DNA of 38,227 bases from positions 1 through 38,227 of the IMG/VR virus record IMGVR_UViG_3300009488_000036; one strand, 5' to 3'. Made by a program: the position numbers and the translations under genes. Shown piece by piece: positions 256-16,711 of this stretch (positions within the stretch are counted from its first letter, which is position 1; every line of letters begins with the position of its first letter). The notes beneath the pieces are model-generated. The model was not told the origin of the DNA. It worked only from the letters and a program-made list of their open reading frames with translations, and made no database searches. This DNA comes from a virus.

Positions 256-264
256 AGCTCCTCC

Positions 265-2553
265 TTAACTAAACACCGTCTGATAAGTCCAGGTGAACCC
301 AAAGTCTCTAGCCTGTGAATTAGCCCATAGCATATCAAGTTCGTCAGAGTCTAGGAAGTAGGCATTCTCAAATGGAACAAAGAGGCTAACTATAGCAGGT
401 GTCTTGGTATTCTGGGTAAAGAGCAATGTATCGTAGGTATCAGCCGTACCAGAGTCCTTCGTTATGGTTAGGCTCTCATCTGTAGTACCTGCTGTATCTA
501 TTTCGCAGTCTATGCTAAGTAGCCTGAATGGAGTCTTAGGAGCAAGAGTGCTATTGGCTGAGGTATCAGTACTGAAGTAGCGTCTATGGCCTATTCTTCC
601 ACTTCCACCACTGTCAGGCTTCAGAGCAATCTGCTCATTGTTGAGAGTTATATCAGCTACCCAGGCATCCTTGAACTCATTGTCTCCAGTGTGCCAGCCG
701 TACTCAAAGGAAATCCTATACACTACCATAGTGTTGAACCGCTCATCACCTTGGAAGTCATCTAGTCCGAAGAGGTTGCCAGGACCTGTGCCAGTTATCA
801 GACTAGTATTAGCTATACCTTCACCATAGTAGTAGAACTGGTTGGTGGTCTGGTTGAGTTCATGAGCATCCCAGCCTGAAGCCTTTTCAAGAGTAGCTAT
901 ATCCGCCTTCTGAGTTATCTCAGCTCTTATATCATAGTCATAAGGGTCATGCACCCAGATAACCATGTTGAGTCCAAAGGCTTCTGCCTCAGTTAGGTAG
1001 TATGACCACCTAGCAGTGTGCAGTAGTGGTAAAGGTAGCTCGTTAACTGGGATGTAGATAGCCGCCCAGTCATTCCATGCAGACTGTACTCCACCGTAGA
1101 GATTAGCCATCCAAGCACTACCACTCTTCTGGTTGAGGTGCTCGAGACCTGGCCTTGACCAAACAGCATCACCATTACCTCTTGCTATCAGAGTAGGTTC
1201 ACCAAACGTAGGTTCTGAGAAGTTCTTCCTAGTTCCAAGGTCATCCAAGTCTGCAGGCGTCCAGTCAACTGCTATATTGTTTATCTGGCAAGAACCAACC
1301 CACACATCACCTGTGCTTCTAGTTCCACTCCAGAAGCCAAAGTCTATCTTAATCATAAAGACAGTCCAGGTGCTGAATATAGAGTCAGCCTGATAGTTCG
1401 CCCAGGTGTAGTTGGTTCCTTCAGTTGGGCAGGTATCAGGAGTTCCAGTTACCTGTCCATACCAGAAGAGAGCTGTAGTAGCTGAGTTGATAATAGTCTC
1501 ATGCCAACCTGCAGTTACTGCACCAGCAGCACTAGCAGTATGACTAATCTCTGCTCTCTGGTCATGGTCTGCTGGGTCATGGACACAGATTACTATGTTA
1601 GGAGCAGCAGCGCCTACATCTGCAGTTCCAGCTAGGAACTTGTAGTAGGTATACATGAATTCGTCAAGGTCAGTCAGGTGCATGTCATTTATAGGAATCC
1701 AGATAGAAGCCCAATCCTCACCACTACTCTGAGGACCTCCATTTAGATGAGCAGCCCAAGGACCTTGCCTGAATTGCCTATTACCATCAGTACCTAGAAC
1801 ATACTTAGCATTTCTAGCCACCTTCTCCCAGACAGCCCAACCATCATTGTCTGCTCGGAGTTCAGGCATACCTATCATTGAGGCAAAGTCAGCACCGCCA
1901 GTATTAACTCTCACTCTTCCTAGTTGGTCAACTGAGAGCGGAGTGTAGTCTCCATCAGCACTAACCATGCTGGCAGGTATATCCTGCCTAACAGCAAGTG
2001 TCATAATACCTTTGTCGCCAGAGCTATGAGCTGCATCTTCAGCCTTCTCAATTACTGCTCCAGCGGCATCTACCAATAGTGACTTGACAGCATCCGCAGT
2101 ATCGTCAGTAACTTCATCACCAGTAGCAGTCACCATTCTAACCTTACCGATGACTGCTGAGCCAGCAGCTAGTACAGTATTAGTAGCTAACCATTTGACT
2201 CTTCCTAGCAGAGCTACTAACCCACCAGAAGCATAGCTAATACCTCTAACTGCAAATACACGGTCTGCTGTCTGGGCTGCTGAAAGGTAGACTTTGATGT
2301 ATTGATACTTACCACCTATAGGTATAGTAGTTCTAAACCCACCAGTGGTAGATGGAATAGGCTCTTCGTAGCCTATGAGGTCAAAGGTGCCAGCAGACTG
2401 ATTAGCACCCTTGATTTGGATTTCAGCTGCTTCTATGGTAGGGATGTCTACTTCGATTGCTTCGAAGGCATCCTGTAGGTCTACCTCAGGAGTGTTCTGG
2501 TCATCTGTACCAAATGCCAGAGTAGTTGAAAACCATTTACTTATTAAGGACAT
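265..2553 (-). CDS. Virion structural protein with an internally duplicated domain (762 aa)
   Basis: Large late gene with SD AAGGGGGTAAGAA before ATG. Residues 190-220 contain a DGDYTPLSVDQLGRVRV-type stretch that recurs in many phage structural proteins. Residues about 264-430 and 479-644 are clearly duplicated: both copies run (W)-x-A/N-L-x-G-G-x-Q-S then D-W-A-(S/A)-I-(W/Y)-I-P-(I/V)-N, then V-H-D-P, then R-A-E-I, then a W/F-Y-G block, and end in a hydrophobic beta-rich segment. The remainder is rich in Thr, Ala, Gly and beta strands. Position downstream of the capsid gene and before a LamG-like gene suggests a fibre, spike or decoration protein. No catalytic motif was recognised, so the exact role is unknown. 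Confidence 0.75.
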   Translation of the reverse strand: MSLISKWFSTTLAFGTDDQNTPEVDLQDAFEAIEVDIPTIEAAEIQIKGANQSAGTFDLIGYEEPIPSTTGGFRTTIPIGGKYQYIKVYLSAAQTADRVFAVRGISYASGGLVALLGRVKWLATNTVLAAGSAVIGKVRMVTATGDEVTDDTADAVKSLLVDAAGAVIEKAEDAAHSSGDKGIMTLAVRQDIPASMVSADGDYTPLSVDQLGRVRVNTGGADFASMIGMPELRADNDGWAVWEKVARNAKYVLGTDGNRQFRQGPWAAHLNGGPQSSGEDWASIWIPINDMHLTDLDEFMYTYYKFLAGTADVGAAAPNIVICVHDPADHDQRAEISHTASAAGAVTAGWHETIINSATTALFWYGQVTGTPDTCPTEGTNYTWANYQADSIFSTWTVFMIKIDFGFWSGTRSTGDVWVGSCQINNIAVDWTPADLDDLGTRKNFSEPTFGEPTLIARGNGDAVWSRPGLEHLNQKSGSAWMANLYGGVQSAWNDWAAIYIPVNELPLPLLHTARWSYYLTEAEAFGLNMVIWVHDPYDYDIRAEITQKADIATLEKASGWDAHELNQTTNQFYYYGEGIANTSLITGTGPGNLFGLDDFQGDERFNTMVVYRISFEYGWHTGDNEFKDAWVADITLNNEQIALKPDSGGSGRIGHRRYFSTDTSANSTLAPKTPFRLLSIDCEIDTAGTTDESLTITKDSGTADTYDTLLFTQNTKTPAIVSLFVPFENAYFLDSDELDMLWANSQARDFGFTWTYQTVFS

Positions 2554-2590
2554 TTCTTACCCCCTTGAAATGTTTATTTTTCTATTTAGT

Positions 2591-2767
2591 TTATCGTCCG
2601 AAGTCTAGTTCCTTCCCAGTAGACTGGCGAGCCATACTGTAAGCTTGCCCAGCAGCCTCCTCCTGGGTCTTGCCCTCCCTTATCAGTTGACCAATAGTGT
2701 CACTGATAGCTTGGCGTATCTGCTCCATTGAGCTAGTATCGTTGAGTGCTTCTACTGCAAGAGGCAT
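2591..2767 (-). CDS. Small late protein, 58 aa, unknown function
   Basis: Read directly from the minus strand: ATG at 2767, TAA at 2591-2593. The start overlaps the stop of the upstream FmdB-like gene as TAATG, with SD GGAGGTGA a few bases before, so translation is probably coupled. The product (begins MPLAVEALND, ends GKELDFGR) is acidic and helical, with a helix-turn-helix-like spacing (SMEQIRQAISDTIGQL, then TQEEAAGQAY). I do not recognise the family. The tight packing and SD make it a convincing gene; a virion accessory role is inferred from the operon only. Confidence 0.7.
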   Translation of the reverse strand: MPLAVEALNDTSSMEQIRQAISDTIGQLIREGKTQEEAAGQAYSMARQSTGKELDFGR

Positions 2768-3021
2768 TATGCACTCACCTCCTTACCAGATTTCTTTCTT
2801 ATTGGATATTCAGTACGTTCAGTAGTTTGTCTTTGCCCTATCACAGAGCCATCGTGTCCATAGGTAGTGAAGGTATGAGCAAACAGAGGCTTGCCCAGTA
2901 AGGATATTCTAACATGGACAGGTTTTTCACAGTTAGGGCATACCACATTATTCCTATCCTCTATGCTGTGCAGCTCCTCAAACCTGTGTCCACCTTCACA
3001 CTCATACTCGTATAAGGGCAT
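2767..3021 (-). CDS. FmdB-type zinc-ribbon protein (84 aa)
   Basis: Begins MPLYEYECEGGHRFEEL, the usual opening of the FmdB/CxxC regulatory zinc-ribbon family, followed by CPNC about 22 residues later. The first metal-ligand pair is C-x3-H rather than C-x2-C. The frame is open further upstream to an ATG at 3063, but only the ATG at 3021 has an SD (AGGGAGAAC) and matches the family start, so it is chosen. Such small zinc ribbons are common beside phage capsid genes; their role there is unknown. The stop overlaps the next gene's start. Confidence 0.8.
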   Translation of the reverse strand: MPLYEYECEGGHRFEELHSIEDRNNVVCPNCEKPVHVRISLLGKPLFAHTFTTYGHDGSVIGQRQTTERTEYPIRKKSGKEVSA

Positions 3022-3072
3022 CTTGTTCTCCCTGGGGAGGGCAGTTGTTAGCCACCCTCCCATTTACTGATT

Positions 3073-3198
3073 CTACTTCTTCTTGAAACGTAGTGCTTTC
3101 AGTAGAGATTTCCTATCAGGATTAGGTACATCTAAGCCCTTCTCCTTACATAGGTCAAGCAGGTCACCAGCAGACATTCGGTTAAGTTTATCAGCCAT
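3073..3198 (-). CDS. Small basic protein with HeH/SAP-like fold (41 aa)
   Basis: Read from the minus strand: ATG at 3198, TAG at 3073-3075, SD AAGGAGATAGC overlapping the end of the upstream 327-residue gene. The product (MADKLNRMSAGDLLDLC..., ending RFKKK) has the pattern L-x-x-L-C-x-x-x-G-L-x-x-x-x-x-x-x-x-L-x-x-x-L, typical of the short helix-extension-helix (HeH/LEM/SAP) fold often fused to phage head proteins. A free-standing mini version next to capsid genes is plausible. Function unknown; nucleic-acid or protein binding is inference. Confidence 0.6.
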   Translation of the reverse strand: MADKLNRMSAGDLLDLCKEKGLDVPNPDRKSLLKALRFKKK

Positions 3199-3199
3199 G

Positions 3200-4183
3200 C
3201 TATCTCCTTAGCTGCAGATAGTACATTACTGCGGTTTGCTCGTCAGCACCAGTAGTACCCTCAACATAGGTGCTAAACATTACCTGACCTGCGATTGGAT
3301 TGTTCTGGAAATAGGTAGAACCATCGTGAGCATTACTAATAATAGAGCCATCACCCATCACCCAGTATAAGGACTCTCTATTGGACTGCCCACCAAAGTC
3401 AGTTATCCAGATTGTAGAGCAAGGTCCCCAGGTCTGATACCAAACATAGTAGTCAGCGTCTGGGTTATTGTAGCAGCAAGCACCCATAGCTCCATAGTAA
3501 ATATCAGAAGCTGACGCTACCTCCCTGTAACAGTGCTTCCAGGGATTAGGCAGCAACATGGAGGTCAAGGCAGTAACACTCGTAACAATAGGCTGATCAA
3601 GTATAAGTTCACTATTAAGAGTATTGCCACTATTGTCCCACGTAGTTCCAAGACTTTCAGGTCTAGTAGGCTCAGTGGCAGACCCAGCAGCAGCAGTGTA
3701 GTTGTGAGCCACAATTCTGCGATAGAACGGTCTTGTCGCAGAGCCAGTATCCTTACCGTTGACCCAACCACCTGATAGGTAGTTGTCTGCCTTTAGTCCT
3801 GTAGGAGCAGATGGTGTAGTTGTGTACCACATAGAATCCTCTCCAGCTACCGCCCTAGTGACTAAGCCAGAAGCCATATCTCTCTGATAGGCATTGGTGA
3901 AGTGTATCCTACCAAGCTCATCAGCACCAGTTGCCCCAGGTGTTGCTCCATGTGTTGCAGCACGACCTAGATGCTTGCCGTAGTAGAAGATTCTCTCACC
4001 CTCTACATACTTAGTACCTACAGGATATAGAGCAGCAACATCGTTAGTATTGTAGACATTAGGCAGCTTTAGATTACCCCAACCACTCTCACCTTGAAAC
4101 CAAGGAGGCATTATGATATAAGAACCATTGTTACTCCTTATGTCATGGTTAAGGTATTTGCCAGTTTCAACTTTGTTCGCCAT
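3200..4183 (-). CDS. Capsid-proximal virion protein (327 aa)
   Basis: SD AAAAGGAGAAAAGTAAA precedes ATG at 4183. The gene follows the major capsid gene immediately and starts MANKVETGKYLNHDIR. It carries a block (AALYPVGTKYVEGERIFYYG) of a type I associate with uncharacterised proteins beside phage capsid genes, then a low-complexity Thr/Gly/Ala-rich beta-type region and Trp/Tyr/Cys-rich C-terminal half. High expression is expected from its position. It may be a head decoration or fibre protein; no catalytic motif was seen. Confidence 0.65.
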   Translation of the reverse strand: MANKVETGKYLNHDIRSNNGSYIIMPPWFQGESGWGNLKLPNVYNTNDVAALYPVGTKYVEGERIFYYGKHLGRAATHGATPGATGADELGRIHFTNAYQRDMASGLVTRAVAGEDSMWYTTTPSAPTGLKADNYLSGGWVNGKDTGSATRPFYRRIVAHNYTAAAGSATEPTRPESLGTTWDNSGNTLNSELILDQPIVTSVTALTSMLLPNPWKHCYREVASASDIYYGAMGACCYNNPDADYYVWYQTWGPCSTIWITDFGGQSNRESLYWVMGDGSIISNAHDGSTYFQNNPIAGQVMFSTYVEGTTGADEQTAVMYYLQLRR

Positions 4184-4215
4184 TTTACTTTTCTCCTTTT
4201 ATATTTTGGTGTTTA

Positions 4216-4241
4216 AGTAGGCACACCGTTCAAAGCCTACT
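4216..4241 (-). other. Hairpin directly after the major capsid stop codon
   Basis: AGTAGGC (4216-4222) and GCCTACT (4235-4241) form a 7-bp stem with a 12-nt loop, two bases beyond the capsid TAA. There is no clear U-tract on the minus transcript, so a simple intrinsic terminator is unlikely. A 3' mRNA-stabilising hairpin or partial terminator that sets the capsid to downstream ratio is the likely role. Confidence 0.5.
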
Positions 4242-4243
4242 GC

Positions 4244-5329
4244 TTAAGCAGTTATTGCGTGGTCTTGAATGTCAAAGATTCTTCCCAGGCATTGACTCGA
4301 GCCTAGTAGTAAGGCACTGTTATTAACAAGCCTTAAACCACCAGCATCGTAGTCTTCCAACTCAGGGAAGCGGACTAGTTTGTAGAGGTCTCCAGCCCCC
4401 TCAGTTCCACCATAAGCGTAGGTTAGACCAGGCTCCATATTCAGTACGTTCCCATGCTTTACTGCGAAGATGGAGTAGGCACGAGTGCCTGAGCTATATA
4501 GTCCTCTAGCATTGGCTGTACCCCCAGTACCAGTTCCATCTGCCTCTGCAACGAGGTAGTCAGTTCTGATAATAGGAATACCATCCCAGAAGAGGACTCT
4601 CTTACCAAGATCATTGTAGCCCATAGTGATGAAGCTGAGACTGCCCGCAGTGCCAGATGCTAGACTAGCAAAGCCTGTCTCCTGATAGGCAGCATCCATT
4701 CTGCGTACAATCTCAAAAGGCGACCAGAGCTCATCTACACCGTGTAGCATATTATCGACTAGCACCCTCAGGTTCCAAAGGCTAAGAGCTCCACTTGCCC
4801 CATCAATATTCTTAGGGTCGTAAGCAGAGCCTTGAGTCCAAGGAGTACCATGCTCAGCAGCCAGAGCGTGAACACCATCAAACTGCTTGCTTGAGCTATA
4901 GGTGTTATCGGCGTAGATTATCCTAGCCCCTATCTTCCTCTTCAATCCCTTCTCAGATTCCAGAAGCATCCTTGCTTCATAGTTGTTGTAGGTTCCATAG
5001 ATACCAGGTAAGTAGTGGTCTAGTTTCCTCTGGATATAGACTCTACGAAGAGTCATTTCTTTCTCATCATAGTTTACATCCTCAGTCCAGGACAGTTGCT
5101 CACCGATATCTATCTCAACCACAGCTGCTTCAATAGCAGTTACTGCTGCTGCCTGCTCCCTCAGCCACTCTATCTTAAGTCCACTGTGAGCAGCCTGTGC
5201 TACAGTGAGCCTCTCTAGTGGATTATTCCTCTTGATGTCCTCTTCGAAGACACCTGGAATCTTGGTAGATTGAGTTAGCTTCTGAGCAGCAGCTAGATTT
5301 GTCCAATGTCCACCTGACTCATCCGCCAT
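4244..5329 (-). CDS. Major capsid protein, HK97-fold type (361 aa)
   Basis: The length, position directly after a scaffold gene, and sequence style fit phage major capsid proteins. There is an N-terminal acidic arm, a segment R-R-V-Y-I-Q-R-K-L-D-H-Y, repeated alpha/beta insertions with G-x-x-x-x-L-R-x-L-V-D-N-M, a P-I-I-R-T-D segment at the usual place of the A-domain strand, and a late F-P-E-L-E-D region. SD AGAAGGAGACAAGTAAT is strong. Scaffold and capsid are served by the late promoter at 6040-6069. The N-terminus is not the long delta-domain type, consistent with a separate scaffold. Family call is by synteny and pattern. Confidence 0.85.
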   Translation of the reverse strand: MADESGGHWTNLAAAQKLTQSTKIPGVFEEDIKRNNPLERLTVAQAAHSGLKIEWLREQAAAVTAIEAAVVEIDIGEQLSWTEDVNYDEKEMTLRRVYIQRKLDHYLPGIYGTYNNYEARMLLESEKGLKRKIGARIIYADNTYSSSKQFDGVHALAAEHGTPWTQGSAYDPKNIDGASGALSLWNLRVLVDNMLHGVDELWSPFEIVRRMDAAYQETGFASLASGTAGSLSFITMGYNDLGKRVLFWDGIPIIRTDYLVAEADGTGTGGTANARGLYSSGTRAYSIFAVKHGNVLNMEPGLTYAYGGTEGAGDLYKLVRFPELEDYDAGGLRLVNNSALLLGSSQCLGRIFDIQDHAITA

Positions 5330-5352
5330 ATTACTTGTCTCCTTCTAGTTTA

Positions 5353-6018
5353 TTACTTATCAGCAGACCTGGTACCTGTTAAGGGAGTGCTTGCTAAGGT
5401 TTCTGCTGCTCTCTCCATTTCGGTCTTAGGAGCAGCTTCACCTTGCCCTCCACCTAGTGCATAAGGTCCAAGACCACTTCTAGATGTTGCCAGCGCCTTC
5501 AGCGCTTCTTCAAAAGAGTCAAGCTCCATAAGTGACTTGTCTTTTAACTGCTCCTCACTAACTGTTCCCTGCGAAGCAAGGACAATGTTAGCTCGGCGGA
5601 GTTCTAGAACTCTGGCACTAGCCTGTTCTAAACTACTTTTGGTAGTCTCTGCCTCCTGCTTGACCCTCGCAGCTTCCTCATCAGAAACTGCACCCGCCTG
5701 ACGGGCCTGCTCGTTCTTCTGGATTGTTGCATTTAGTTGGGCTATCTGCTGTAGAGCATTAGAAGCCTCTAACTTAGCACTATCAATAGCACCTTCGTGG
5801 GCTGTCTGCTGCTTTTCCAACTGCCCTTCTAAATTCTTCTTCGCAGCAATCAGGTCAGACTCTGCTACAAAACTCTTACCATCAACTAACACCTTACCAT
5901 CTTTTACTTCTACCTTAGCGGTAGGCTCTATTGGTTCAGGCGGAGTTGCTGGCTCAGCTGCAGGAGCCTGAACTTCAGGACTGCTAGAAGCACCATTCGG
6001 CTGGTTCTCAGTTCCCAT
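5353..6018 (-). CDS. Head scaffolding protein (221 aa)
   Basis: Directly upstream of the capsid gene. The N-terminal 45 residues are rich in Pro, Glu and Ala; residues about 60-150 are a long Gln/Ala/Glu-rich coiled coil; the C-terminus is Gly/Ala/Thr-rich with a basic end. This layout (disordered N-terminus, coiled coil, short C-terminal capsid-binding tail) is standard for phage scaffolds, which guide shell assembly inside the prohead and then leave or are degraded. SD AGGAGGATGTAGAT. It is the first gene after its own promoter. A protease domain was not seen. Confidence 0.8.
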   Translation of the reverse strand: MGTENQPNGASSSPEVQAPAAEPATPPEPIEPTAKVEVKDGKVLVDGKSFVAESDLIAAKKNLEGQLEKQQTAHEGAIDSAKLEASNALQQIAQLNATIQKNEQARQAGAVSDEEAARVKQEAETTKSSLEQASARVLELRRANIVLASQGTVSEEQLKDKSLMELDSFEEALKALATSRSGLGPYALGGGQGEAAPKTEMERAAETLASTPLTGTRSADK

Positions 6019-6039
6019 ATCTACATCCTCCTATTAGTC

Positions 6040-6069
6040 AGTATAACATACCCTCCTATGTGGTGTCAA
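6040..6069 (-). promoter_or_regulatory. Late promoter for scaffold and capsid genes
   Basis: On the minus strand TTGACA (6064-6069) and TATACT (6040-6045) are separated by 18 bp, about 20 bp before the scaffold start region. It matches the other minus-strand promoter at 17718-17746 in both its -35 box and its unusual TATACTGA -10. It would boost the most abundant virion proteins independently of read-through from the giant gene. Confidence 0.75.
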
Positions 6070-6121
6070 GGATATAATAATATGTATTACTAATGTATAC
6101 GGATTAAATTTTTACCATTGA

Positions 6122-9100
6122 CTATCTACTCCCAATCATATCAGGAGTTAGGTACTGCTTCCTAAGGTCCTCATACATTTGCTCTGCTTCCTTAGACATG
6201 AGAGTATCAGTTCTCCCAAAAAAGTTAAGCCAGGCATCAGTCAGAGGGTCAAGTATGCGGAAGCGTTGGCGAGCTTCTCGAAGTCTCTTGTTAAATCCTG
6301 AGATGAGTTTAAGACCATCAGGACCTATGATTTCCTGTAACTCCTCTCGTTCAGTACCTCGAGCTACCTCAAATCTGCGGATATGCTTGACTTGCTCTTC
6401 ATCATATTCTCGGAGTACTATGTCTCTGAGGTTTCTGTAGGGTCTTAGATGTTCTCGGCTAACGTTCCAGTAGAGCCTCTCCATAGGAGTCCAGTCAGCC
6501 TGGATACGTTGAATAAGGCGTTCTCGGTGAGCAGCATCTAGAGATTCCAGCAGGATATCAATCTTGGCATAGTAGGTTTCAAAGTCCATCTCCATTCTCT
6601 CAGATTCCCAAGAGTACTTATACTCAGGACGAAGTTCGTAGTAGTAGTACAGTAGCTCCTGGTCAGGCCCTTGAGTTGGTGTAGGTATACCTCGCTCCTC
6701 TAGCATCTCAGCTCGCTCATCAAAGGTCTTAGGTACATCCTTGTAGGCAGGAGATTCTCCTAGAATCCTACCAGCCTCACCTAGACCACTCTGTATATCA
6801 CTGCGTAGTCCCATCCACTGGTCAGGACCTATTTCATCAGATATAAACTGGCGATTAGCTTCTACTATGCTAGGTCTAACCGTTACTCCATCTTCATAGA
6901 CTCCTTCATATCTTGCTTCATTGTATACTTTGTCTAGCTCCTCATAGTAGTCTCTAATCTTCACATCAAGGAGCTGCCAAGAGGAAGGATAGAGAGGAGT
7001 TGTTACTCCTTGCCAGCGACGATAAGATTCAAATTCGTAGAGGAGTTTCTGTTGTAGAACATCTAGACTGTAGTAGTCACTAAATCTCTTGCCAGTAACA
7101 GGATACATTCTATCTATCTGTTCCTGCACTGCTACAGGCACCCCAGTTGCGTCTTCAATAGCTAGCCTCATTGACTCTCGGATTTGAGTATATTCCTGAG
7201 GTCTTATGCGGAAGATACCAGTTTGCTGCATAAGGATACCTTTGATGCCGTTGGCTCTATTCTCAGCTCTAAGCCAGAGCTTCTCCTCTTCAGGCGTAAG
7301 TGTTATTCCTTGCTTCTTCTTCCGCCAAATAGCATCAGCATCATAGCCCTCTTCACCCAGAGTAAGCATGGTCTGGAAGTCTCTAAAGCGGTCAGGGTAG
7401 ACTATGTCTAGCACCTTACCTATATGCTCAGGAGACATAGCTCTTAGTCCTGATAGCCCTGTCCTTACCCAGGCAGGAGCTAGTTCACCCCACTCTGGCT
7501 TTCCTGCTAGTGCCCCAAAGGCTACAATAGGAGCCATAACATGAACTCCTGGGAAGAAGCCTGCTCTGCCAATATAGTCTATCTGTTCCATTCCTGGAAA
7601 CTGGTCATAGTACTCAGGGAAGTCTTTAAGGTAGAAGCTCCTTAGTCCACCCATCCAGACTGAGCCTCGGAGTGGATTGAGTTGAAGGTCAGTGCCAGGT
7701 AGAGGCACATAGCCTTGGTCTGTATAATTCATCCAGCGAGCTAGACCAGTCATAGTACCTGGTGTTCTCATCCAGGTACGAGGTATCCATCTCCAGCGGA
7801 AGAGTTCATAGTTCCAGAATGGAAACACTGCTCTCATAGACTCGTCTATTATGTTAGCATTATCGTAGGTAGGATAGGCTAGAGCATGACGTTCTCGGGC
7901 TAGAGTCATAGCCTGTTCTTTGTTAGACCACCACTGAGGCCTTACAGCAGTAGGAGCTCGTAGAGGACCCTCAATTCTACTCTTCAGAACGCTAGATGGA
8001 ATTACAAGTTCAGACTCTATCACAGAGCCAATAGCTAAGACATCATCAACTTTAATAAGAATATCATCTATTTCAGGAGCTAACTCTTTGCCAGTCCTGT
8101 CCACCCAAGACTTCTGGAAGTCCACTGCCGTACTTCTGCGACTAGTAACATTAGTAAACTCCCTCTCCAGCGCTTCACCAGGCTTGAGAGCACCACCTTG
8201 TCCACGATAGATTCTGATATACCCAGATGGATAGTTCTCATTAAGTATCTTGCGGATTCCTTGGGTATACTCAGGACTTCCTTGAGCTACTCTACCTATA
8301 GTCTGTAACTCATCATTATGAGCCTCCAACTGCCATATATCAGTTACATCTCTGAGGGTGTCACCATTAGCCTTGGTCTCCTGAGCAATCTTATCAACCT
8401 GACTCCTGATACGATTAATCTCTTCTGGGTCAACCATAACATCACGCCGCCTAGGAACTGTAACTAGTTTCCTAGCCTGCTCCATAGTATAGCCTTCCTG
8501 AACAGCTAGCTCCCTTGCTCGTTCTTCAATGAGGCGTTCAAACTCAGCTTCCTCAATAATACGCTCGCCAAGACCAATATCTGCCTCAGGCACTACACGT
8601 TCAGCATACATAGGCAGATTATCTAAGTCATCAGCTACTCCATTGACATACTGTCTCCACTTGACTACATCAGGAGCACTAACTACCTGTATAGGTTCCA
8701 CAAGTTCAATAGGACCCATAGGCTTCTTAGAGAATACAATAGTAGTCTGACCCTCCTTAGCAGCCAACTCATGAAGACTACTCATATCGGCATGGCTCAA
8801 CAGGTTCCTGTCAGTTTGAACTGCCATCTCTCCAGCCTTCTTGTAGTTAAACGTAATGTACCCTGCCTTGCCAGATGTCAAGCCCTCTACGACACTGCTT
8901 CTAGGTCCTGCAAGCGGAGATATCACTTCAGTGTGCTGTCCAGCCCTAGAAACTCTATGCAGCTCTCCCTGCCACAGCACAGCTCTGTAGTCCCCAGAAG
9001 GGTTCGCCTTAACACTAGGCAACTTATAAGCTGCATGGAGTCTATGCAGCTCCTGCCTTATCTCTTCCATCTGCATTACTGTTGGAGAGTCAGGAGTTAG

Positions 9101-12100
9101 AGTCGTAGGCTCTATTCCCAGATTCCTCCACAGTTGGTCATAGACATCACCTATTGCTTCATCAGTAAAGCCTATATCAGCAGCTACTTTATTAAACTTT
9201 GAGGCATAGGCATCTGCCTGGTTTCTAGCAAGTAGGATGAAGTCTTCTCTTGGATGTATAGTTATATGATGGGATACTCTGGTAAGTCCTCGGTAGAGGT
9301 CATCACCTGTTGCTCCGAAGAGGTAAGCTAAGTGACTAGGAGTCAGTTCATCTACAATATCAGGTATGAAGTCAGGAACGTAGATAGGCTTATCTACTGA
9401 TTGAAGGAAGTTGCGACTAGCCCGCAGTCTAAGGTCTTTGAAGCGGCGAGAGTTAGTATCATACTCATCCCAGATAGAAGCTTTCTGTGTTCTCTGCTGT
9501 TGCCAGAACCTATTATCACGCCTACGCTTAGCAGTGCGAGGAATGACAGATTCTATTTCTGCTATCTTGTTACGAGTTGCTAGGATGTTATTCAGTTCAA
9601 GGCGAGAGATGTTATCTAAGTCGGTAAGGCGAGCTAGTTGAATATCAGACATCATTGGAGTAGGAGACACCACAGATGTAGGGTCAAGTACAAATATATC
9701 CTCACCAAAGCTAGTAGCAGTATAGCCCCTTCTCTTAAGAATACCTACCCATTCAGGCTCTGGGAATAGAAACAGACTATCAGACAATTCGCCTGTCTGA
9801 GCAGCTTTAAGGTCAGCAGCCCCCTTACCAACTACGCTAGTATACTCATCTAACAGGCTTGTAACTTCCGAAGACCCCACATCCAAAATATTCTGCTTCC
9901 CAGTTATAACAAACTCTGACACATCTCCATACTGTGCAGCCTGAGCACGACTACGAGATACGAATACTCCAGGGAAGTCTCTAGCTGCTCTCTCGGGAGA
10001 TGGAGCTCCTCTAAACACATTAATACCAGTAGCACCAGGAGCACCCTTAGCATTCTCCACTATCTGATTCATCATTCTCACTAGCTGCTCTTCTGAAGTA
10101 TCCATGAATTCTGCTAGTAGCTTAGCTGAACCAACTTCAAAGTCATCAAAGTCAGCAGGGCTAAGTTTAGCCTTTCTTAGCTCTGTCAACCTCCTATAGT
10201 CATGTATCCTCTCCCCAGTGCCTTCTATCATAGAAGTTATGCTCTGCATATCTCCAAGGAACTCATCTATGTTTCTAGGAGGATTAGCCAAGAAGGCATC
10301 TGCTTCACTCTTCAAGACATCTATCTGATTCTGTAGACTAACTAGTGACAACTCTCTTTCTGCTTCTATAAAGGCAGCAACCCTATCGTCTATGTTCTTG
10401 AAGATAGAGCCGTCCAGCACCTCATCTCTAATACCATTCTTAGTTATCATTCTTACTTCAGTAGCCCTATCAAAGGTTTTGCCCAGTTCCTTGCTAATCT
10501 GTCTCCGTTCCATAGTAAGCACATCTATATCAGCATGAGCTCTTACCTCAGCAGAGCCTACAGTTGAATCTGCTAGAATAACCCGCTCCAAGTCCTTAGC
10601 ATCACCTTTGGTAAAGGCAGTTATATTATCTAGCTCAGCTCTGTGGTTATCTAGTACCTGACTTATCGCTCTCATATCATCTGGAGCTACTTCTGTTAGA
10701 GCCTTCATATAGTGGACTTGGTAGTCATAGGATACTTGAGTAGAGTTAAGATGAGCCCACATATCATACTGGTCTTGGAAGCTACCAAGTTGGAAATCCT
10801 TACCAGCAATATTCATCTTCTTGCCTATAGTCTTGCCTCCAAGGAAAGGTATCCGTTCAGGTATAGTTACTTCCTTAGTTACAAATGGTATATTGCCTCC
10901 CTTGAACACTGCAGTTCTACCAGTCTTAGGGTCAATTATAGCCTGAGCTAGCCTTGCCTCTCCACGCTCAAACATATGGAGTTCATAAGGAGCATTAGCT
11001 AGACCTTTGAATAGTCTATTAGTCTCTGCAACTCCACCATAGGCTCTAGGATAGAGCACCTCAGCTCCACCAAGGAAGCTTCTCTGCATATTCTCAAAGA
11101 AGTTGAAAGGTCCAAAGTTCAGGAAGAGCAGATTCCACCTAGCTACTGGCATTACCACTCGGCGTTCCAGTGCTACCAATTGAGTCGAGTACAGTATATT
11201 ATCCATGTTTCTAACAAAGGCTGATACTGACCTACCTGCCTGAGTCATATGTTCAGTCAGAGGGCTATGAAGGTTAGAATATCTTATCCCTTCCATTCTA
11301 TTGAACAGGTTAAGCATAATGTCTTCAGGCACATCACCCTTAAGAGCGGCTAGGGAGTCCTTAGCTACTTTATCCTTAAGAGTAGATAGTTTAGCTGCCA
11401 TCTTCTCAACCGCTTCTTCAGTAGCTTCTACCCCAAGGTCAGCTATAATTTTACCAGCTGTTACTCTCTCACCCTGACCACTAAACATATTGAGTACTTC
11501 ATTATTAAAGTGAGCTAGGCGAGCAGTGTCCATAGTTACTTCTGCAGCTTCAGATATTACCTCCCCAGCAGGACCGTAGATAGGAGTTCTTATAGGCTCT
11601 AGTATCTTCTTGGCTGCTACGTCATCTAGATAGTTGAACTCTAATAGACCAGCCCCTGCCTTATTCATCAGGTTGTGGCCTTCATAAGGATTGTCCATAG
11701 TCTGCTTTATGCAAGCCTCAGCAGTATCTCTCAAGTCCTTAGCCGTCAGCCCCTTCATGCTACTAACATCTGGGAAGGCTCTGTCAAGTACAGCCTTAAA
11801 GTCCATAAAGCCTTTACGAGCAAAGTTCCTAGCCAATGTAGTAGCAGTTCGAGGAATCTGATAGCCTGCACCAAGAGTCCAGAATGCACCTTTGATAGGC
11901 TGCTTAGCTAGCCACATCCCACCTTGGAATGTAAGGTCAGCTCCTGCCATGAAGCCTTGCTCAAAGTCAATAATTAGATTACCTATCCTTGAGCCTCTGT
12001 TAGCCATTCTGCCACCCCTGGCTACTCCACCAAGCTTACCACCTATACCAGTAATAAGACCAAAGCCTATATAACTTATAGGGTCAAATGCTGCCTCAGT

Positions 12101-13249
12101 AGCTATCTTTGCATACCAAGGAGCATCCCACTCATTAAAGGCCATAGCAAGTGAAGCCCAGTTGCTCTCACCTTGTGAGCGGTAGAGGGTAAATTGTCTT
12201 TCCAGTTCAGCAGCATATGTATCTTCTGAAGTTTTGAATAGCCTATGAGTACCTATAATAGCAGCAGATGCAAGTGGTCTGGGAAGCATATTGAAGTACT
12301 TATCCAACATCTCCATAGTTGCCATCATAGGCTGAGTTACCATTAGTTTAGTAAACTCCCAAGGTGTGAGGCTAGGAGCTTCTGCCTGTAGAGCACCAGC
12401 CCGAATAAGGTTAAGCCTATCAGACTCTATAGCCCAGGCATTAGCCCGCTCTGTTAGCCAATCCTTAGCAGAATCAATCTCCTCATCTTGTAGCTCTATC
12501 TGGGCAAGTATGTCTCGAACGCCCTCTTCTGTCATATTCCTTGGCAGTTCTGCTACTCCAAAGGCAAAGGACTTAGCAATTTCATCTACAGTTAGATTAT
12601 GCACTCCTTTGAGCTCTAGTTTAGGTGCAGTTAGTACTTCATTTAGTACCTTAGACTGAGCCTCCCAAGTATCACCATCAAAGCCTTCTGGCAGTACGTT
12701 AGACAGATGCTTCATTCTATCGTATAGGTTAGTAAGCCATATGTTGTCGTCAGGTCTTAGAGCATCATTAGGAATGTAGTTAAGTACGTCCTCAGAGCGT
12801 TGGATTTTATAGTCAGGGATAGATAAATAGTTCGGTAGGGATATCATTACCTCCTGACGCCATCTAATAGACTTCAGTTCCTGAAGAGATAAGTCAAGCT
12901 CTACCTGTGCTTCTTCTATCTGCTGCTCGTAAACTGCTACATCGGTTAGTCTAAAGCTCAAGAATGGAAAGATAGGGAATATTCTCTCGCCCGCTCTAGG
13001 TAGTTCAAATGGAGCAGCAAATTTGAATCTACGGGCTAGACCTGCTCTTGCCTGCTCAGCTGCCATAGCCCTCTGCTCAGCCCTCCTTTGGGCTACTCCA
13101 AGTTGCTGTAGCTCCTGACCAAAGCCAGGAAAGAACTCAGGCTGCTCAACAGGTGGAGGCAATAAGAGCCTGCCAGCCTCACCCAGCTGCCAGCCTTTCT
13201 CTTCTAGTACTTTCTTAGTATATTCAGTAATTTCAGCTATGTCTGGCAT
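6122..13249 (-). CDS. Giant virion-associated polyvalent protein with ADP-ribosyltransferase-like domain(s) (2375 aa)
   Basis: Lies between portal and scaffold, where MuF-type or ejected head proteins often sit. SD GAGGAGTAAACT. The N-terminal region is helical and charged; about 389-430 is a Gly-rich hydrophobic stretch. Residues about 1677-1760 fit the R-S-E class ADP-ribosyltransferase plan: R1682 in IRIYRGQ, a T-N-V-T-S-R-R-S segment around 1699-1706, and E1745-S-E1747 in VIESELVIP. A second, weaker ART-like region lies at about 1076-1193 (VFRGAP with R1080, FVSRSRAQAAQYG, later GYTATSFGEDIFVLDP) but has no clear E-x-E. Residues about 1800-1830 are Trp/Phe/Arg-rich; the C-terminal 250 residues are helical. 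Injection with DNA, as for T4 Alt, is inferred from position and size. Confidence 0.7.
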   Translation of the reverse strand: MPDIAEITEYTKKVLEEKGWQLGEAGRLLLPPPVEQPEFFPGFGQELQQLGVAQRRAEQRAMAAEQARAGLARRFKFAAPFELPRAGERIFPIFPFLSFRLTDVAVYEQQIEEAQVELDLSLQELKSIRWRQEVMISLPNYLSIPDYKIQRSEDVLNYIPNDALRPDDNIWLTNLYDRMKHLSNVLPEGFDGDTWEAQSKVLNEVLTAPKLELKGVHNLTVDEIAKSFAFGVAELPRNMTEEGVRDILAQIELQDEEIDSAKDWLTERANAWAIESDRLNLIRAGALQAEAPSLTPWEFTKLMVTQPMMATMEMLDKYFNMLPRPLASAAIIGTHRLFKTSEDTYAAELERQFTLYRSQGESNWASLAMAFNEWDAPWYAKIATEAAFDPISYIGFGLITGIGGKLGGVARGGRMANRGSRIGNLIIDFEQGFMAGADLTFQGGMWLAKQPIKGAFWTLGAGYQIPRTATTLARNFARKGFMDFKAVLDRAFPDVSSMKGLTAKDLRDTAEACIKQTMDNPYEGHNLMNKAGAGLLEFNYLDDVAAKKILEPIRTPIYGPAGEVISEAAEVTMDTARLAHFNNEVLNMFSGQGERVTAGKIIADLGVEATEEAVEKMAAKLSTLKDKVAKDSLAALKGDVPEDIMLNLFNRMEGIRYSNLHSPLTEHMTQAGRSVSAFVRNMDNILYSTQLVALERRVVMPVARWNLLFLNFGPFNFFENMQRSFLGGAEVLYPRAYGGVAETNRLFKGLANAPYELHMFERGEARLAQAIIDPKTGRTAVFKGGNIPFVTKEVTIPERIPFLGGKTIGKKMNIAGKDFQLGSFQDQYDMWAHLNSTQVSYDYQVHYMKALTEVAPDDMRAISQVLDNHRAELDNITAFTKGDAKDLERVILADSTVGSAEVRAHADIDVLTMERRQISKELGKTFDRATEVRMITKNGIRDEVLDGSIFKNIDDRVAAFIEAERELSLVSLQNQIDVLKSEADAFLANPPRNIDEFLGDMQSITSMIEGTGERIHDYRRLTELRKAKLSPADFDDFEVGSAKLLAEFMDTSEEQLVRMMNQIVENAKGAPGATGINVFRGAPSPERAARDFPGVFVSRSRAQAAQYGDVSEFVITGKQNILDVGSSEVTSLLDEYTSVVGKGAADLKAAQTGELSDSLFLFPEPEWVGILKRRGYTATSFGEDIFVLDPTSVVSPTPMMSDIQLARLTDLDNISRLELNNILATRNKIAEIESVIPRTAKRRRDNRFWQQQRTQKASIWDEYDTNSRRFKDLRLRASRNFLQSVDKPIYVPDFIPDIVDELTPSHLAYLFGATGDDLYRGLTRVSHHITIHPREDFILLARNQADAYASKFNKVAADIGFTDEAIGDVYDQLWRNLGIEPTTLTPDSPTVMQMEEIRQELHRLHAAYKLPSVKANPSGDYRAVLWQGELHRVSRAGQHTEVISPLAGPRSSVVEGLTSGKAGYITFNYKKAGEMAVQTDRNLLSHADMSSLHELAAKEGQTTIVFSKKPMGPIELVEPIQVVSAPDVVKWRQYVNGVADDLDNLPMYAERVVPEADIGLGERIIEEAEFERLIEERARELAVQEGYTMEQARKLVTVPRRRDVMVDPEEINRIRSQVDKIAQETKANGDTLRDVTDIWQLEAHNDELQTIGRVAQGSPEYTQGIRKILNENYPSGYIRIYRGQGGALKPGEALEREFTNVTSRRSTAVDFQKSWVDRTGKELAPEIDDILIKVDDVLAIGSVIESELVIPSSVLKSRIEGPLRAPTAVRPQWWSNKEQAMTLARERHALAYPTYDNANIIDESMRAVFPFWNYELFRWRWIPRTWMRTPGTMTGLARWMNYTDQGYVPLPGTDLQLNPLRGSVWMGGLRSFYLKDFPEYYDQFPGMEQIDYIGRAGFFPGVHVMAPIVAFGALAGKPEWGELAPAWVRTGLSGLRAMSPEHIGKVLDIVYPDRFRDFQTMLTLGEEGYDADAIWRKKKQGITLTPEEEKLWLRAENRANGIKGILMQQTGIFRIRPQEYTQIRESMRLAIEDATGVPVAVQEQIDRMYPVTGKRFSDYYSLDVLQQKLLYEFESYRRWQGVTTPLYPSSWQLLDVKIRDYYEELDKVYNEARYEGVYEDGVTVRPSIVEANRQFISDEIGPDQWMGLRSDIQSGLGEAGRILGESPAYKDVPKTFDERAEMLEERGIPTPTQGPDQELLYYYYELRPEYKYSWESERMEMDFETYYAKIDILLESLDAAHRERLIQRIQADWTPMERLYWNVSREHLRPYRNLRDIVLREYDEEQVKHIRRFEVARGTEREELQEIIGPDGLKLISGFNKRLREARQRFRILDPLTDAWLNFFGRTDTLMSKEAEQMYEDLRKQYLTPDMIGSR

Positions 13250-13264
13250 AGTTTACTCCTCACC

Positions 13265-15025
13265 CTATGCTTCCCTTTGAGGCTCTCTGCCTCCACCAGG
13301 TAGTTGCGGTATAGCCTCAGGTCTACCCATACCTGGAACCTGACCTGGAGGGGGCTGTGCTGGCTGTTGAGGCCCTAGCATATTCAGAGCCATGTCTGAA
13401 GCTAGTTCGTAGAGTCTAGCAGAATCAACATCACCTATCCGAGTTAAGTAAGCAGCCTGTCTGCGATAGTACTGGATAAGAGCTATGATTGAGTTGCTAG
13501 GATGAAGTTCAGCTTGGTCAGCTCTAACCTGAGCTCTCTCCATTAGAGGGTCTGCGATATCTGGGAAGAGCTTTTTAGATACATAACTATAGCTTAACCT
13601 GAAGTCAGGGTCTAGCATACGGGCAGTTGTAGCTCTCTGCACTAAGTCCCCAGGAATCTCTACCTCATACTCGGCAGATACTCTCACACCTTCTGGTAGT
13701 GCGGTTGGATAGGCCCAACCGTAAGGTTTAACTCCTCGTGTCTTAATATCCTCTAGCCAGTCATTGTCCTCATCCTCATACTTGGCTATAAATGCCTGGT
13801 GGAAAGGCTTAATTATCTGGTTAGCAGAGGCAGCTATCTGACTCATTACATAAGCGGTCATTTGACCTTGTACACTTCCATACATAGACCAACTAACACC
13901 ACCTCGTTGCATCATAGCTTCAAGGTCTAGTTGAGTACTCCTGAGCTCTAGTGGTATAGGTGGAGTTCCAATGAAGTCAACTGAGTCATCAGGACCTCCC
14001 CTAAATATAGCCCCTCTGCGAAAGACATCCTCTGGCTTGACTATAGACTTACCACTCCTACTTCGTTCAAAGATTCTAGGTTGAGCAGTATCTCTCAGTA
14101 GCTGCATACTGAAGCTCCACCACTTATTCCAGGCTCGGTAGATGTTCTCATTGGTTGCTATAATCGCCTGCCCAATCTCAGCCTTCCAGCGGTCAACATT
14201 AGATTCCTGAGTCTGAAGTTTGAGAGTGGCTGAGTAAGTTGGTAGTGCTCCTTCAGTTAAACTGCCCATATCAGGTAGCCCACCAACTGGTGCTACATAT
14301 ATAGGCATACGCCTGAATCGGGTAGGTCCAAACTTCACCAGTTCTTTGTCTATCACTATTGCATTGTAGATGAGCTTAGTGAATGGGAACTCCTCTGCTA
14401 TCTCAGTCCACCAGTAGTCACAGATAGTTACATCCTTGCCGACAGCAGCTCTCCACTGGTTGTAGGCACTCCTGAACTTCCACCCATTCTCCCTAGCCAT
14501 AGCAACTGCCTGCTTGGAGCTTATCTTGTAGATGTGAGCAACCTCATCCAGTCCCAGTGCTCCATCCCACATAGGATAGACTTCAATAGGATTCCAAGGC
14601 TCGGCATAGCACCTCTTACCATCATCTGATACTATAGCAAACTCAGCATACCAGCCAGTTGCTAACATAAATCCAAGAGAAGTCCGCTGGAGGCTTTGCC
14701 TGGGGTTACCTCGGCGGAAGGTATTATGGACATCCTTCCAGGCAGTTCGGAAGAATGAGCTAACAGAAGCGACTGCATTAGCTGCTTCTAAATCTACTAG
14801 TTCATAGTCCTTAATCCTATGAGGTATGTCAGTGTCAAGGAGATGAAGCACCAAGTTGAATAGTGCCCTAGGATCATTACCTACAAAGGACTCCATCTTT
14901 TCAGTCTTGAGCTCATCTACCATCTCTATCATTCTGTACCAAGCACGCATCTTAGTATCTCTAGGAGACCAGAACTCTTTAAGCTCATTGCATCTCGCTA
15001 TAACTGATGTAGCATCATTCTTCAT
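13265..15025 (-). CDS. Portal protein (586 aa)
   Basis: Located directly after TerL, with SD GGAGGAAGCAA. It has the features of a portal: an early AWYRMIEM and F-V-G-N-D-P-R segment, a central beta/alpha wing with acidic residues, EPWNPIEVYPMWD (the 'P-x-x-V-x-P-M-W-D' segment seen in many portals), a long helical stem, and a disordered Pro/Gly/Gln-rich C-terminus. The portal forms the dodecameric ring through which DNA is packaged and released. Length is in the usual range. The assignment is by synteny and pattern. Confidence 0.85.
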   Translation of the reverse strand: MKNDATSVIARCNELKEFWSPRDTKMRAWYRMIEMVDELKTEKMESFVGNDPRALFNLVLHLLDTDIPHRIKDYELVDLEAANAVASVSSFFRTAWKDVHNTFRRGNPRQSLQRTSLGFMLATGWYAEFAIVSDDGKRCYAEPWNPIEVYPMWDGALGLDEVAHIYKISSKQAVAMARENGWKFRSAYNQWRAAVGKDVTICDYWWTEIAEEFPFTKLIYNAIVIDKELVKFGPTRFRRMPIYVAPVGGLPDMGSLTEGALPTYSATLKLQTQESNVDRWKAEIGQAIIATNENIYRAWNKWWSFSMQLLRDTAQPRIFERSRSGKSIVKPEDVFRRGAIFRGGPDDSVDFIGTPPIPLELRSTQLDLEAMMQRGGVSWSMYGSVQGQMTAYVMSQIAASANQIIKPFHQAFIAKYEDEDNDWLEDIKTRGVKPYGWAYPTALPEGVRVSAEYEVEIPGDLVQRATTARMLDPDFRLSYSYVSKKLFPDIADPLMERAQVRADQAELHPSNSIIALIQYYRRQAAYLTRIGDVDSARLYELASDMALNMLGPQQPAQPPPGQVPGMGRPEAIPQLPGGGREPQREA

Positions 15026-15040
15026 TTGCTTCCTCCACTA

Positions 15041-16711
15041 TCATTTCCCCCAACTGTCATCCCATCCTGCGCTTCCTTGATAACCTCTTGCTATTGGCAC
15101 AGCATCTCGGCAGGCTACAGCAATAGCAGCAGCATCATGGTGGTCATCAGCACCAACTACCAGTATGCCACTCTTAACCATAGCATTTCTGCGTATGTTC
15201 TTACACTGAGACCAGAATCTTACATCTTGACAGTCAATATCATCCAGGTGCCTGTTAAGTTCTGTTATCATATAAGGCTTGGTAGATACATTAGTCTGCC
15301 AGCCTACAGCCCTAACTGACTTGCCAGTTCTAACATCCTCACGCCAGTAGAGGTCGGAGTAGTCTCTAAGGTGAGAAACAATGTCTAGGTTGTCCTCAGG
15401 TGCTATTACTGCTGTATTGTAGTAGTGCCCAACTTCCTTCATATACTCAGCCGTCTCCCACTCATCATAAAAGCCAGCTAGAGTAGCACAGTGCTGCATT
15501 ATTGGATGAACTTCATTGCCATCCTTGTCCCTGTAACCTTCTGCAAAAGTCCATACTTGACCTACAGACTCAGATGTCTTACCTTTCCCAGGGTCAATGC
15601 TAATTAGGTAGCCTCTGCCTTCCTCTACATCGTGCCAGATTTCAAGTGTAGCAGATGTACCATTCTTAGGATTCACTATATTCTTTGTAATAGGTGCTGG
15701 CACACAGTTGCGTATCTTATCAGTTATTATGTCAGAGTTGTAAGCCTGGTCACCTGCTACAAGGAAGCAGCTCTCATCATCTTCAGGATACTCCTGCTCA
15801 AATAGCATAACAGTATCACCACTTCTGCGTAGGCTAGCCATTTCTGCCTTCTTATATCTCCTCCATCGAAGTTTAGCCATAGCCTCATACTCATCAAAGT
15901 TGTATACTTCCACTAGCAGTCTCATCATGATTACTTCATCTGAATGCAGATTGTTCAGAGGCTCTACAGCATCTCCAGATAGACAGAATGGGTCATCAGC
16001 ATACATCACATACTCAGGATGAATAAACCAGTGGTAGAAGTGAGGTTGATAGACTGACTGAGCTACAGTTGTTCCTTCTTTGGCGGCTCTATACATTTCG
16101 CAGAAAGGATTATCTTCACCATTGGCGGTAGACTGAACTCTTATCTTTGTTCCAGGCTTCAGTGGTACTCTCTGAACAGCTGAGCCAAATACCGCTTCAT
16201 GAGTGCCTAGGAGCCAGAAGGCATACTCATCCAGTAGCAGGTTATGTATTGCTTCACCTCTTCCTAGAGTGTAGCTTCTAGATGAGAATATGTACATTAC
16301 TGAGTAGTGCCCAGTATTCTTATCCTCCCAGGTAAGTTCCTCAGCTCCCTTATGCTCTAGCTTTGGAATAGTAGGGATTCTCTTAAGAAGGAAGCTGTGG
16401 AATCTCTTAGCCTTAAGGATGAGCCTCTTAGCACTAGTTTCATCGTAGCTTATAATGACTGACACAGTGCCATTGATAGTAATGTTGTCTAGGTAGAAGT
16501 CAGCCACATGAACTGACGTAGCACCCACCTGCCCAGGCTTGACATAGATGTCTCTAAAGCCTGAGTTCGTTATCATATCTGCTTGAATAGGATTTAGTAT
16601 GAAAGGAACAAGCCGCCTTTCCTTGTTCTCTATTTGGAGTAGTGACTCCATAGTCAACTGGCGGTTAGAGAATAGAGTCCGCAGAGCTTGGTCTTGAGTA
16701 ACAGTAGCCAC
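15041..16711 (-). CDS. Terminase large subunit (TerL, 556 aa)
   Basis: DNA-packaging motor ATPase and nuclease. The P-loop region is KPGQVGATS (58-66), Walker B is NLLLDE (157-162), and a coupling-motif region STANG lies at 194-198. The C-terminal RNase H-fold nuclease shows D373 in SIDPGKGK, E439/D440 in APEDN and D522/D523/D526 in ADDHHDAAAIA. The classical Walker A lysine position holds Ala (GATS). The start is GTG at 16711 with SD GGAAGAGATA. It follows the small-subunit candidate and precedes portal, the normal order. Confidence 0.9.
   Translation of the reverse strand: MATVTQDQALRTLFSNRQLTMESLLQIENKERRLVPFILNPIQADMITNSGFRDIYVKPGQVGATSVHVADFYLDNITINGTVSVIISYDETSAKRLILKAKRFHSFLLKRIPTIPKLEHKGAEELTWEDKNTGHYSVMYIFSSRSYTLGRGEAIHNLLLDEYAFWLLGTHEAVFGSAVQRVPLKPGTKIRVQSTANGEDNPFCEMYRAAKEGTTVAQSVYQPHFYHWFIHPEYVMYADDPFCLSGDAVEPLNNLHSDEVIMMRLLVEVYNFDEYEAMAKLRWRRYKKAEMASLRRSGDTVMLFEQEYPEDDESCFLVAGDQAYNSDIITDKIRNCVPAPITKNIVNPKNGTSATLEIWHDVEEGRGYLISIDPGKGKTSESVGQVWTFAEGYRDKDGNEVHPIMQHCATLAGFYDEWETAEYMKEVGHYYNTAVIAPEDNLDIVSHLRDYSDLYWREDVRTGKSVRAVGWQTNVSTKPYMITELNRHLDDIDCQDVRFWSQCKNIRRNAMVKSGILVVGADDHHDAAAIAVACRDAVPIARGYQGSAGWDDSWGK

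What the first reader, a model, noticed from the sequence alone, without database searches (positions are those of the whole stretch)
6122..13249. Giant head-module protein with an R-S-E ADP-ribosyltransferase signature
The 2375-residue protein lies between portal and scaffold, a slot used for ejected or MuF-type proteins. Residues about 1677-1760 fit the R-S-E ADP-ribosyltransferase layout (R1682, the TNVTSRRS segment, E1745-x-E1747). A second region at about 1076-1193 has R1080 and a similar FVSRS turn. If packaged and injected, it could modify host proteins at infection as T4 Alt does, but as part of a very large polyvalent protein.
Basis: partly seen in the sequence, partly recalled or inferred. 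Interest (0 to 1): 0.72.

Follow-up and report, generated by a model that had tools for sequence, protein, structure and literature searches.

The report
Phage giant protein with swappable enzyme cassettes
A very large protein encoded among the head genes of an uncultured tailed virus carries two likely ADP-ribosyltransferase modules, and comparison with its relatives shows a conserved backbone with fixed sites where different enzymes (transferases, probable proteases, DNA-binding domains) are swapped in and out, as if the virus carries exchangeable tools to inject into its host.

Summary
In detail: one 2375-residue ORF lies on the minus strand (6122-13249) between portal and scaffold, and R1682, TNVTSRRS and E1745-S-E1747 are where stated. 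Only one relative of that module was found; the two are 57% identical although the rest of the proteins is 21% identical, and R, TS and ExE are invariant. A motif built from T4 ModA/ModB hits only this protein among 945 ORFs. AlphaFold failed for this region (pLDDT 35), so its fold is unproven. The second region (1066-1200) gave a usable model (pLDDT 75) whose best matches are ART folds: a cyanophage ejectosome protein, diphtheria toxin, AcrIF11 and phage ART-PolyVal proteins. Its predicted active site is R1080...D1184, not R-S-E.

The larger result is the setting. At least 112 viral stretches encode the same core, between portal and MCP, with cargo inserted at about six fixed sites: ART, GNAT, HExxH, ParB and NTase-like domains. 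Cores 95% identical carry different cargo, and the same module appears at different sites. Two relatives carry an N-terminal transglycosylase as T7 gp16 does. Best reading: an injected polyvalent protein, new variant of a known kind. Injection and activity are untested.

The parts
6122..13249 (-). giant head-module protein, 2375 aa (whole ORF, stop included)
   Evidence: relatives at about 29-81% identity in the C-terminal core
10292..13249 (-). conserved N-terminal core, residues 1-986
   Evidence: aligned in L003 and others
9650..10054 (-). cargo site B: ART-like region 1 (residues 1066-1200), R1080, FVSRS 1096-1100, D1184
   Evidence: absent in L006/L019/L003, replaced by other domains in L005, L012 and others; homologous to the site D insert of L093, 41%; AF2 pLDDT 75, ART folds as best structural matches
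9020..9640 (-). conserved core block between sites B and C (residues 1204-1410)
8669..9019 (-). cargo site C: insert X of unknown kind (residues 1411-1527)
   Evidence: absent in most relatives; other inserts in L038 and L060; no Pfam match
8288..8593 (-). cargo site D, leading part (residues 1553-1654), predicted helical
   Evidence: low-confidence model
7955..8287 (-). cargo site D: R-S-E ART-like module (residues 1655-1765); R1682, TNVTSRRS 1699-1706, E1745-S-E1747
   Evidence: site empty in L019, L037, L002 and filled by other domains in other relatives
6125..7936 (-). conserved C-terminal core (residues 1772-2375); intein-like insertions sit at 1812-1816 and 1842 in relatives
13265..15025 (-). 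portal position gene (586 aa), assigned by gene order only
   Evidence: conserved upstream of the giant in the relatives; no family match
15041..16711 (-). terminase large subunit
   Evidence: homologue in L095 matches PHROG 2 terminase, E 1.7e-12; order conserved
5353..6018 (-). scaffold-like coiled coil
   Evidence: PHROG 530 part, E 0.002 here and 1.1e-4 in L003
4244..5329 (-). major capsid protein
   Evidence: PHROG 212, E 3.5e-7

Best explanation
The protein is the conserved giant internal virion protein of a widespread group of uncultured tailed viruses with genomes near 42-44 kb. Its core (about 1,800-2,100 aa) probably sits inside the head near the portal and is ejected with the DNA, as T7 gp16 and N4 gp50 are. 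At fixed sites of this core, evolution inserts and exchanges enzyme domains that reach the cell with it. This copy carries two predicted mono-ADP-ribosyltransferases: region 1 (diphtheria-like / ART-PolyVal fold, predicted active site R1080 and D1184) and region 2 (R-S-E motif R1682, S1703, E1745/E1747), plus an unknown insert. They are expected to modify host proteins in the first minutes of infection, for example to redirect transcription or disable defence. Shown: core, conserved order, insertion sites, cargo exchange, motif conservation, modelled ART fold of region 1. Inferred: packaging, ejection, catalysis, targets.
For: Conserved TerS-TerL-portal-giant-scaffold-MCP order in the 67 distinct giants examined, as far as each contig reaches. 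36 of 46 long giants carry at least one insert of more than 50 aa, at sites S613, S958, A, B, C, D; the core length is 1,783-2,104 aa. Exchange outpaces divergence: L060/L036 cores are 94.6% identical, but L060 carries inserts at B, C, D where L036 is empty; L046/L047 cores are 90% identical with different D cargo; L089/L095 are 84% identical, empty against a 263-aa insert. Both window ART modules are shared with viruses whose cores are only 21-23% identical (module identity 57% and 41%), one at a different site. Cargo: ART-PolyVal PF18760 in two inserts, L011 among them (best E 4.5e-7), GNAT in L006 (1.2e-6), ParB in L030 (1.1e-5); HExxH in five site-B/S958 inserts. Ejection: SLT transglycosylase at the N-terminus of L064 (PF01464 9e-13; PHROG 342 internal virion protein 9e-16) and L063; region 1's best PDB match is a cyanophage A4 pre-ejectosome chain (E 8.9e-4; Z 6.5). 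No other ORF over 1,000 aa in two relatives of 42.6 and 43.8 kb, so no tape-measure candidate. T7 gp16 carries an N-terminal transglycosylase and is ejected into the cell envelope (PMC8954989).
Against: No proteomic evidence that the protein is in the virion. The window's own copy lacks the transglycosylase. The giant core shows no sequence similarity to any known ejection protein, and its gene order (portal-giant-scaffold) differs from T7. Region 2 has no reliable model and no profile match to known ARTs. Region 1's alignment contains ART-PolyVal-like rows, which may have helped the model towards that fold; Z values of 5-6.5 are middling. In region 1 the tyrosine and glutamate of classical H-Y-E enzymes are missing.
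Confidence: 0.62

Rival explanations
1. The giant is a virion structural protein (internal core or scaffold partner) that never enters the cell; the inserted domains are old enzymes reused as binding or packing modules, without catalysis.
For: Region 1 lacks canonical H-Y-E residues; two HExxH-type inserts (L066, L038) have lost the motif; giants without any cargo exist (10 of 46), so cargo is dispensable.
Against: R, TS and ExE of region 2 stay invariant between two modules 57% identical; five otherwise divergent zincin-like inserts keep HExxH; the recognisable cargo is of enzyme or DNA-binding type, as in effectors.
Confidence: 0.15
2. The giant is made late and acts inside the infected cell (or is a self-processing polyprotein) rather than being packaged.
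For: Polyvalent proteins are thought to be cut by their own metallopeptidase domains (PMC5512222); some relatives carry HExxH inserts.
Against: The gene is locked between portal and scaffold/MCP in the contigs examined; two relatives have an N-terminal transglycosylase typical of ejected proteins; no protease domain was found in the window copy.
Confidence: 0.12
3. Region 2 (1655-1765) is not an ADP-ribosyltransferase; the R-S-E look is coincidence.
For: No profile or PDB match, hhalign against ModA/ModB not significant; AF2 model pLDDT 35.
Against: Motif spacing and context (YRG, TS, A-x-x-F, E-x-E-x-x-I-P) fit the ModA family and occur in no other fetched ORF apart from copies of this protein; the conserved positions of the L030 homologue concentrate there; relatives carry recognised ARTs at the same site.
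Confidence: 0.2

Closest known systems
Polyvalent proteins of phages and conjugative elements (Iyer et al. 2017, PMC5512222)
   Same: Very large proteins in the head-gene neighbourhood that combine unrelated enzyme domains (ART, GNAT, ParB, zincin-like, NTase-like).
   Different: Here a long conserved core of unknown family has fixed insertion sites. [quoted passage not shown] this family appears to hold both. No MuF or LPD domain was matched.
T4 Alt / ModA / ModB (R-S-E ADP-ribosyltransferases)
   Same: R-S-E-type signature YRG ... TS ... ExE; Alt is packaged and injected.
   Different: No significant profile similarity to ModA/ModB (Alt itself was not compared); here the module is one of several inserts in a 2375-aa protein.
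T7 gp16 and N4 gp50 (ejected internal virion proteins)
   Same: Very large head-internal candidate; two relatives carry an N-terminal transglycosylase like gp16.
   Different: No sequence similarity of the core was found, different gene order, and no such cargo sites are known to me for gp16.
Cyanophage A4 pre-ejectosome protein (PDB 9k3a chain B)
   Same: Best PDB match of region 1 (E 8.9e-4, Z 6.5), suggesting an ART-like domain in a solved ejectosome protein.
   Different: Only the ART-like domain was compared; the publication was not available here.
AcrIF11 (PDB 6kyf), phage ART anti-CRISPR
   Same: Same fold class as region 1 (Z 6.0 over 112 of 137 residues); also departs from H-Y-Y-E (H-F-H-D, with D115 needed; PMC12421852), as region 1 seems to (R...D1184).
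   Different: A small free protein, not a virion cargo module; its target is Csy1.

Membership tests
R-S-E ADP-ribosyltransferase (Alt/Mod type), region 2 | R, TS and ExE motif in order and spacing | tested here: met
R-S-E ADP-ribosyltransferase (Alt/Mod type), region 2 | profile similarity to the T4 ModA/ModB family | tested here: not met
   hhalign probability 1%; the query profile has two sequences only
R-S-E ADP-ribosyltransferase (Alt/Mod type), region 2 | ART fold | tested here: inconclusive
   AF2 with two sequences, pLDDT 35
R-S-E ADP-ribosyltransferase (Alt/Mod type), region 2 | NAD+-dependent transferase activity | not testable with these tools
   needs an assay
ART superfamily, ART-PolyVal / diphtheria-like, region 1 | ART fold | tested here: met
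   pLDDT 75, pTM 0.69; top PDB and viral matches are ARTs; the alignment was partly ART-PolyVal-like
ART superfamily, ART-PolyVal / diphtheria-like, region 1 | H-Y-[ED] active site | tested here: not met
   R1080 replaces H, no Y; D1184 conserved in L093
ART superfamily, ART-PolyVal / diphtheria-like, region 1 | match to Pfam PF18760 | tested here: not met
   window region no hit; the L011 insert matches at 27.1 bits, under the 31.2 cutoff, and a second insert matches too
Polyvalent proteins | unrelated enzyme domains in one polypeptide | tested here: met
   at family level: GNAT-like plus ART-like in L003 and L042, HExxH plus ART-like in L093, ParB plus R-S-E module in L030; the window copy has two ARTs and an unknown insert
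Polyvalent proteins | encoded among virion genes of a portal-terminase phage | tested here: met
Polyvalent proteins | delivered into the host with the DNA | not testable with these tools
   needs virion proteomics and infection assays
MuF-fused effector proteins | MuF domain | tested here: inconclusive
   no Pfam or PHROG match in the window giant or four divergent giants
T7 gp16-like ejection proteins | N-terminal transglycosylase | tested here: not met
   absent in the window copy; present in L064 and L063

The most novel reading that the evidence does not exclude
A large group of uncultured tailed viruses uses one ejected giant protein as a standard chassis with about six fixed sockets, into which effector enzymes are swapped by recombination between distant lineages and between sockets, including an R-S-E ART of a type reported absent from polyvalent proteins. 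This would be a general plug-in system for first-minute host takeover.
Probability: 0.5. Interest if true: 0.78.

Novelty: new variant of a known kind. Interest (0 to 1): 0.64.

Why it matters
It gives a natural experiment in effector delivery: pairs of viruses with nearly identical cores and different or missing cargo show which sites of a head protein tolerate whole domains. The cargo list is a source of untested anti-defence and host-takeover enzymes, and the family would extend polyvalent proteins to R-S-E ARTs and phage NTases. It also offers a test of whether enzymes can pass through a portal as part of an ejected protein.

Tried and rejected
AF2 of region 2 with two rows: unusable; no more relatives of it found in viral or genome contigs. 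PDB sequence searches with ART and core profiles: nothing credible; a hit of region 1's profile to a glucan-branching enzyme (E 0.007) and of the HExxH profile to a designed barrel (E 7e-4) are read as chance. Known phage genomes: no match to the giant or to either module. Prokaryote genomes: no relative of the core, so the host is unknown. MuF membership considered, no domain found. The hydrophobic segments are weak (best 19-residue mean 1.65), so no transmembrane claim is made. Profile comparisons among insert groups did not link region 1 to region 2, so I do not claim they are a duplication.

Full report
Observation. It is the largest gene of the window. Upstream lie the terminase and a gene in the portal position, downstream a scaffold-like coiled coil and the major capsid protein. 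The portal is assigned by position only; no family model matched it.

Relatives. A search of IMG/VR with the whole protein gave three contigs, and profile searches with its two ends gave more; 112 stretches encode the C-terminal core. No isolate phage and no prokaryote genome matched. In the 67 distinct giants examined the gene lies between portal and scaffold/MCP as far as the contig reaches. Two relatives of 42.6 and 43.8 kb contain no other ORF above 1,000 aa, so there is no obvious tape measure and a short tail is plausible, though not shown.

A conserved core with cargo sites. The first alignment already showed that the relatives agree over long stretches and then differ completely between fixed borders. 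Mapping 46 long giants gives insertion sites at window residues about 613, 958, 987 (A), 1065-1203 (B), 1410-1527 (C) and 1553-1772 (D); 36 giants carry one to three inserts, 10 carry none. Without inserts the core is 1,783-2,104 aa. Sites 1812-1816 and 1842 hold intein-like insertions in L002, L010, L036, L061, L081 and L045. The contents differ: GNAT (L006), ART-PolyVal (L011 and a second insert), ParB-like (L030) by Pfam; GNAT-like at site A, HExxH zincin-like and nucleotidyltransferase-like by motif only; several without any match.

Cargo moves. L060 and L036 have cores 94.6% identical over 1,326 residues (most DNA blocks 87-90%), yet L060 has 150, 167 and 80 aa at B, C and D where L036 has nothing. 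L046 and L047 are 90% identical with unrelated D inserts, and L089 and L095 are 84% identical with D empty against 263 aa. The GNAT-like domain occurs at A in six relatives and at B in two; the zincin-like one at B and at 958. The window's region 1 (site B) has its nearest relative at site D of L093, and region 2 has its only relative in L030. Both of these viruses have cores only 21-23% identical to the window while the modules are 41% and 57% identical. The simplest reading is that the modules were exchanged between lineages.

Region 2 (1655-1765). Between window and L030 the conserved positions concentrate in YPSGYIRIYRG, ALEREFTNVTS, AIGS and ESEL. The motif of the T4 ModA/ModB family matches this protein alone among 945 ORFs. 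Against this, hhalign with a ModA/ModB profile is not significant, databases give nothing, and the AF2 model is unusable, though its low-confidence strand order is compatible with an ART. I hold the ART reading at about 0.75-0.8.

Region 1 (1066-1200). With nine rows AF2 gave pLDDT 75 and pTM 0.69. Foldseek's only PDB match under 0.001 is a cyanophage A4 pre-ejectosome chain; most of the credible remaining matches are ARTs (diphtheria toxin, tankyrase, an insecticidal ART), and VIA-align adds AcrIF11, ParT, NatT and RES toxins at Z about 5-6. Viral structure matches are ART-PolyVal proteins, often in very large polypeptides. Z under 8 is middling, but the list is uniform in kind. R1080 stands where H is usual and D1184 where E is; AcrIF11 also uses D (PMC12421852).

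Mechanism. Two divergent giants (L064, L063) begin with an SLT transglycosylase; the L064 one resembles endolysin and internal virion protein families. In T7 gp16 this domain opens peptidoglycan during ejection while the rest reaches the inner membrane and cytoplasm (PMC8954989); N4 ejects a 3,500-residue RNA polymerase (PMC12633501). Together with the fixed place beside the portal, I infer that the giant is packaged and ejected, and that cargo domains act in the new host. The packaging and ejection steps are inferred, not shown.

Comparison. Iyer et al. (PMC5512222) defined polyvalent proteins and predicted their injection; ARTs are their commonest protein-modifying domains, of the H-Y-D kind, and R-S-E ARTs of the Alt/VIP2 clade were stated to be absent from genuine polyvalent proteins. 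A later survey (PMC9503650) found Alt/VIP2 ARTs fused to MuF. The present family is thus a new variant: a new core, fixed insertion sites, and a probable R-S-E ART.

Limits. All relatives are metagenomic and the host is unknown. Several cargo names rest on motifs. The motif test was not blind. The region 1 alignment contained ART-PolyVal-like rows.

Noticed in passing
L002:654-1592, L010, L036, L061, L081 (site 1812-1816) and L045 (site 1842): Intein-like insertions of about 300 aa (begin with C, most end TGN, followed by T or C) in the most conserved motif of the giant's C-terminal core; L002 matches Pfam Intein_splicing weakly (E 3.9e-5, below cutoff). At least three nearby insertion points.
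   Followed up: partly
L064 (residues 18-118 of ORF 2-7276) and L063 (N-terminus of ORF 5390-11710): SLT transglycosylase domain at the N-terminus of the giant, not found in the other giants fetched.
   Followed up: yes
L005:9494-9886 and L060:8042-8491: Nucleotidyltransferase-like inserts (GSFLGKKAPKDIDI; GTYARVAEVPTPKTHDVDVLI), by motif; the 2017 survey saw pol-beta NTases only in conjugative-element polyvalent proteins.
   Followed up: partly
L038:7619-8131, L038:8729-9268, L060:9089-9589: A domain without family matches that occurs twice in one giant (sites B and C of L038, 36% identical) and again in part in L060.
   Followed up: no
L019:4812-7496: Terminase large subunit ORF of 895 aa, about 340 longer than in the window; perhaps an intein.
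   Followed up: no
window 17936-38194: The other half of the window is mostly on the plus strand and by inspection encodes replication-type genes (family A polymerase-like at 35378-37045, ATPase-like at 27014 and 30716, deaminase-like at 34785, methyltransferase-like at 33961); no tRNA.
   Followed up: no
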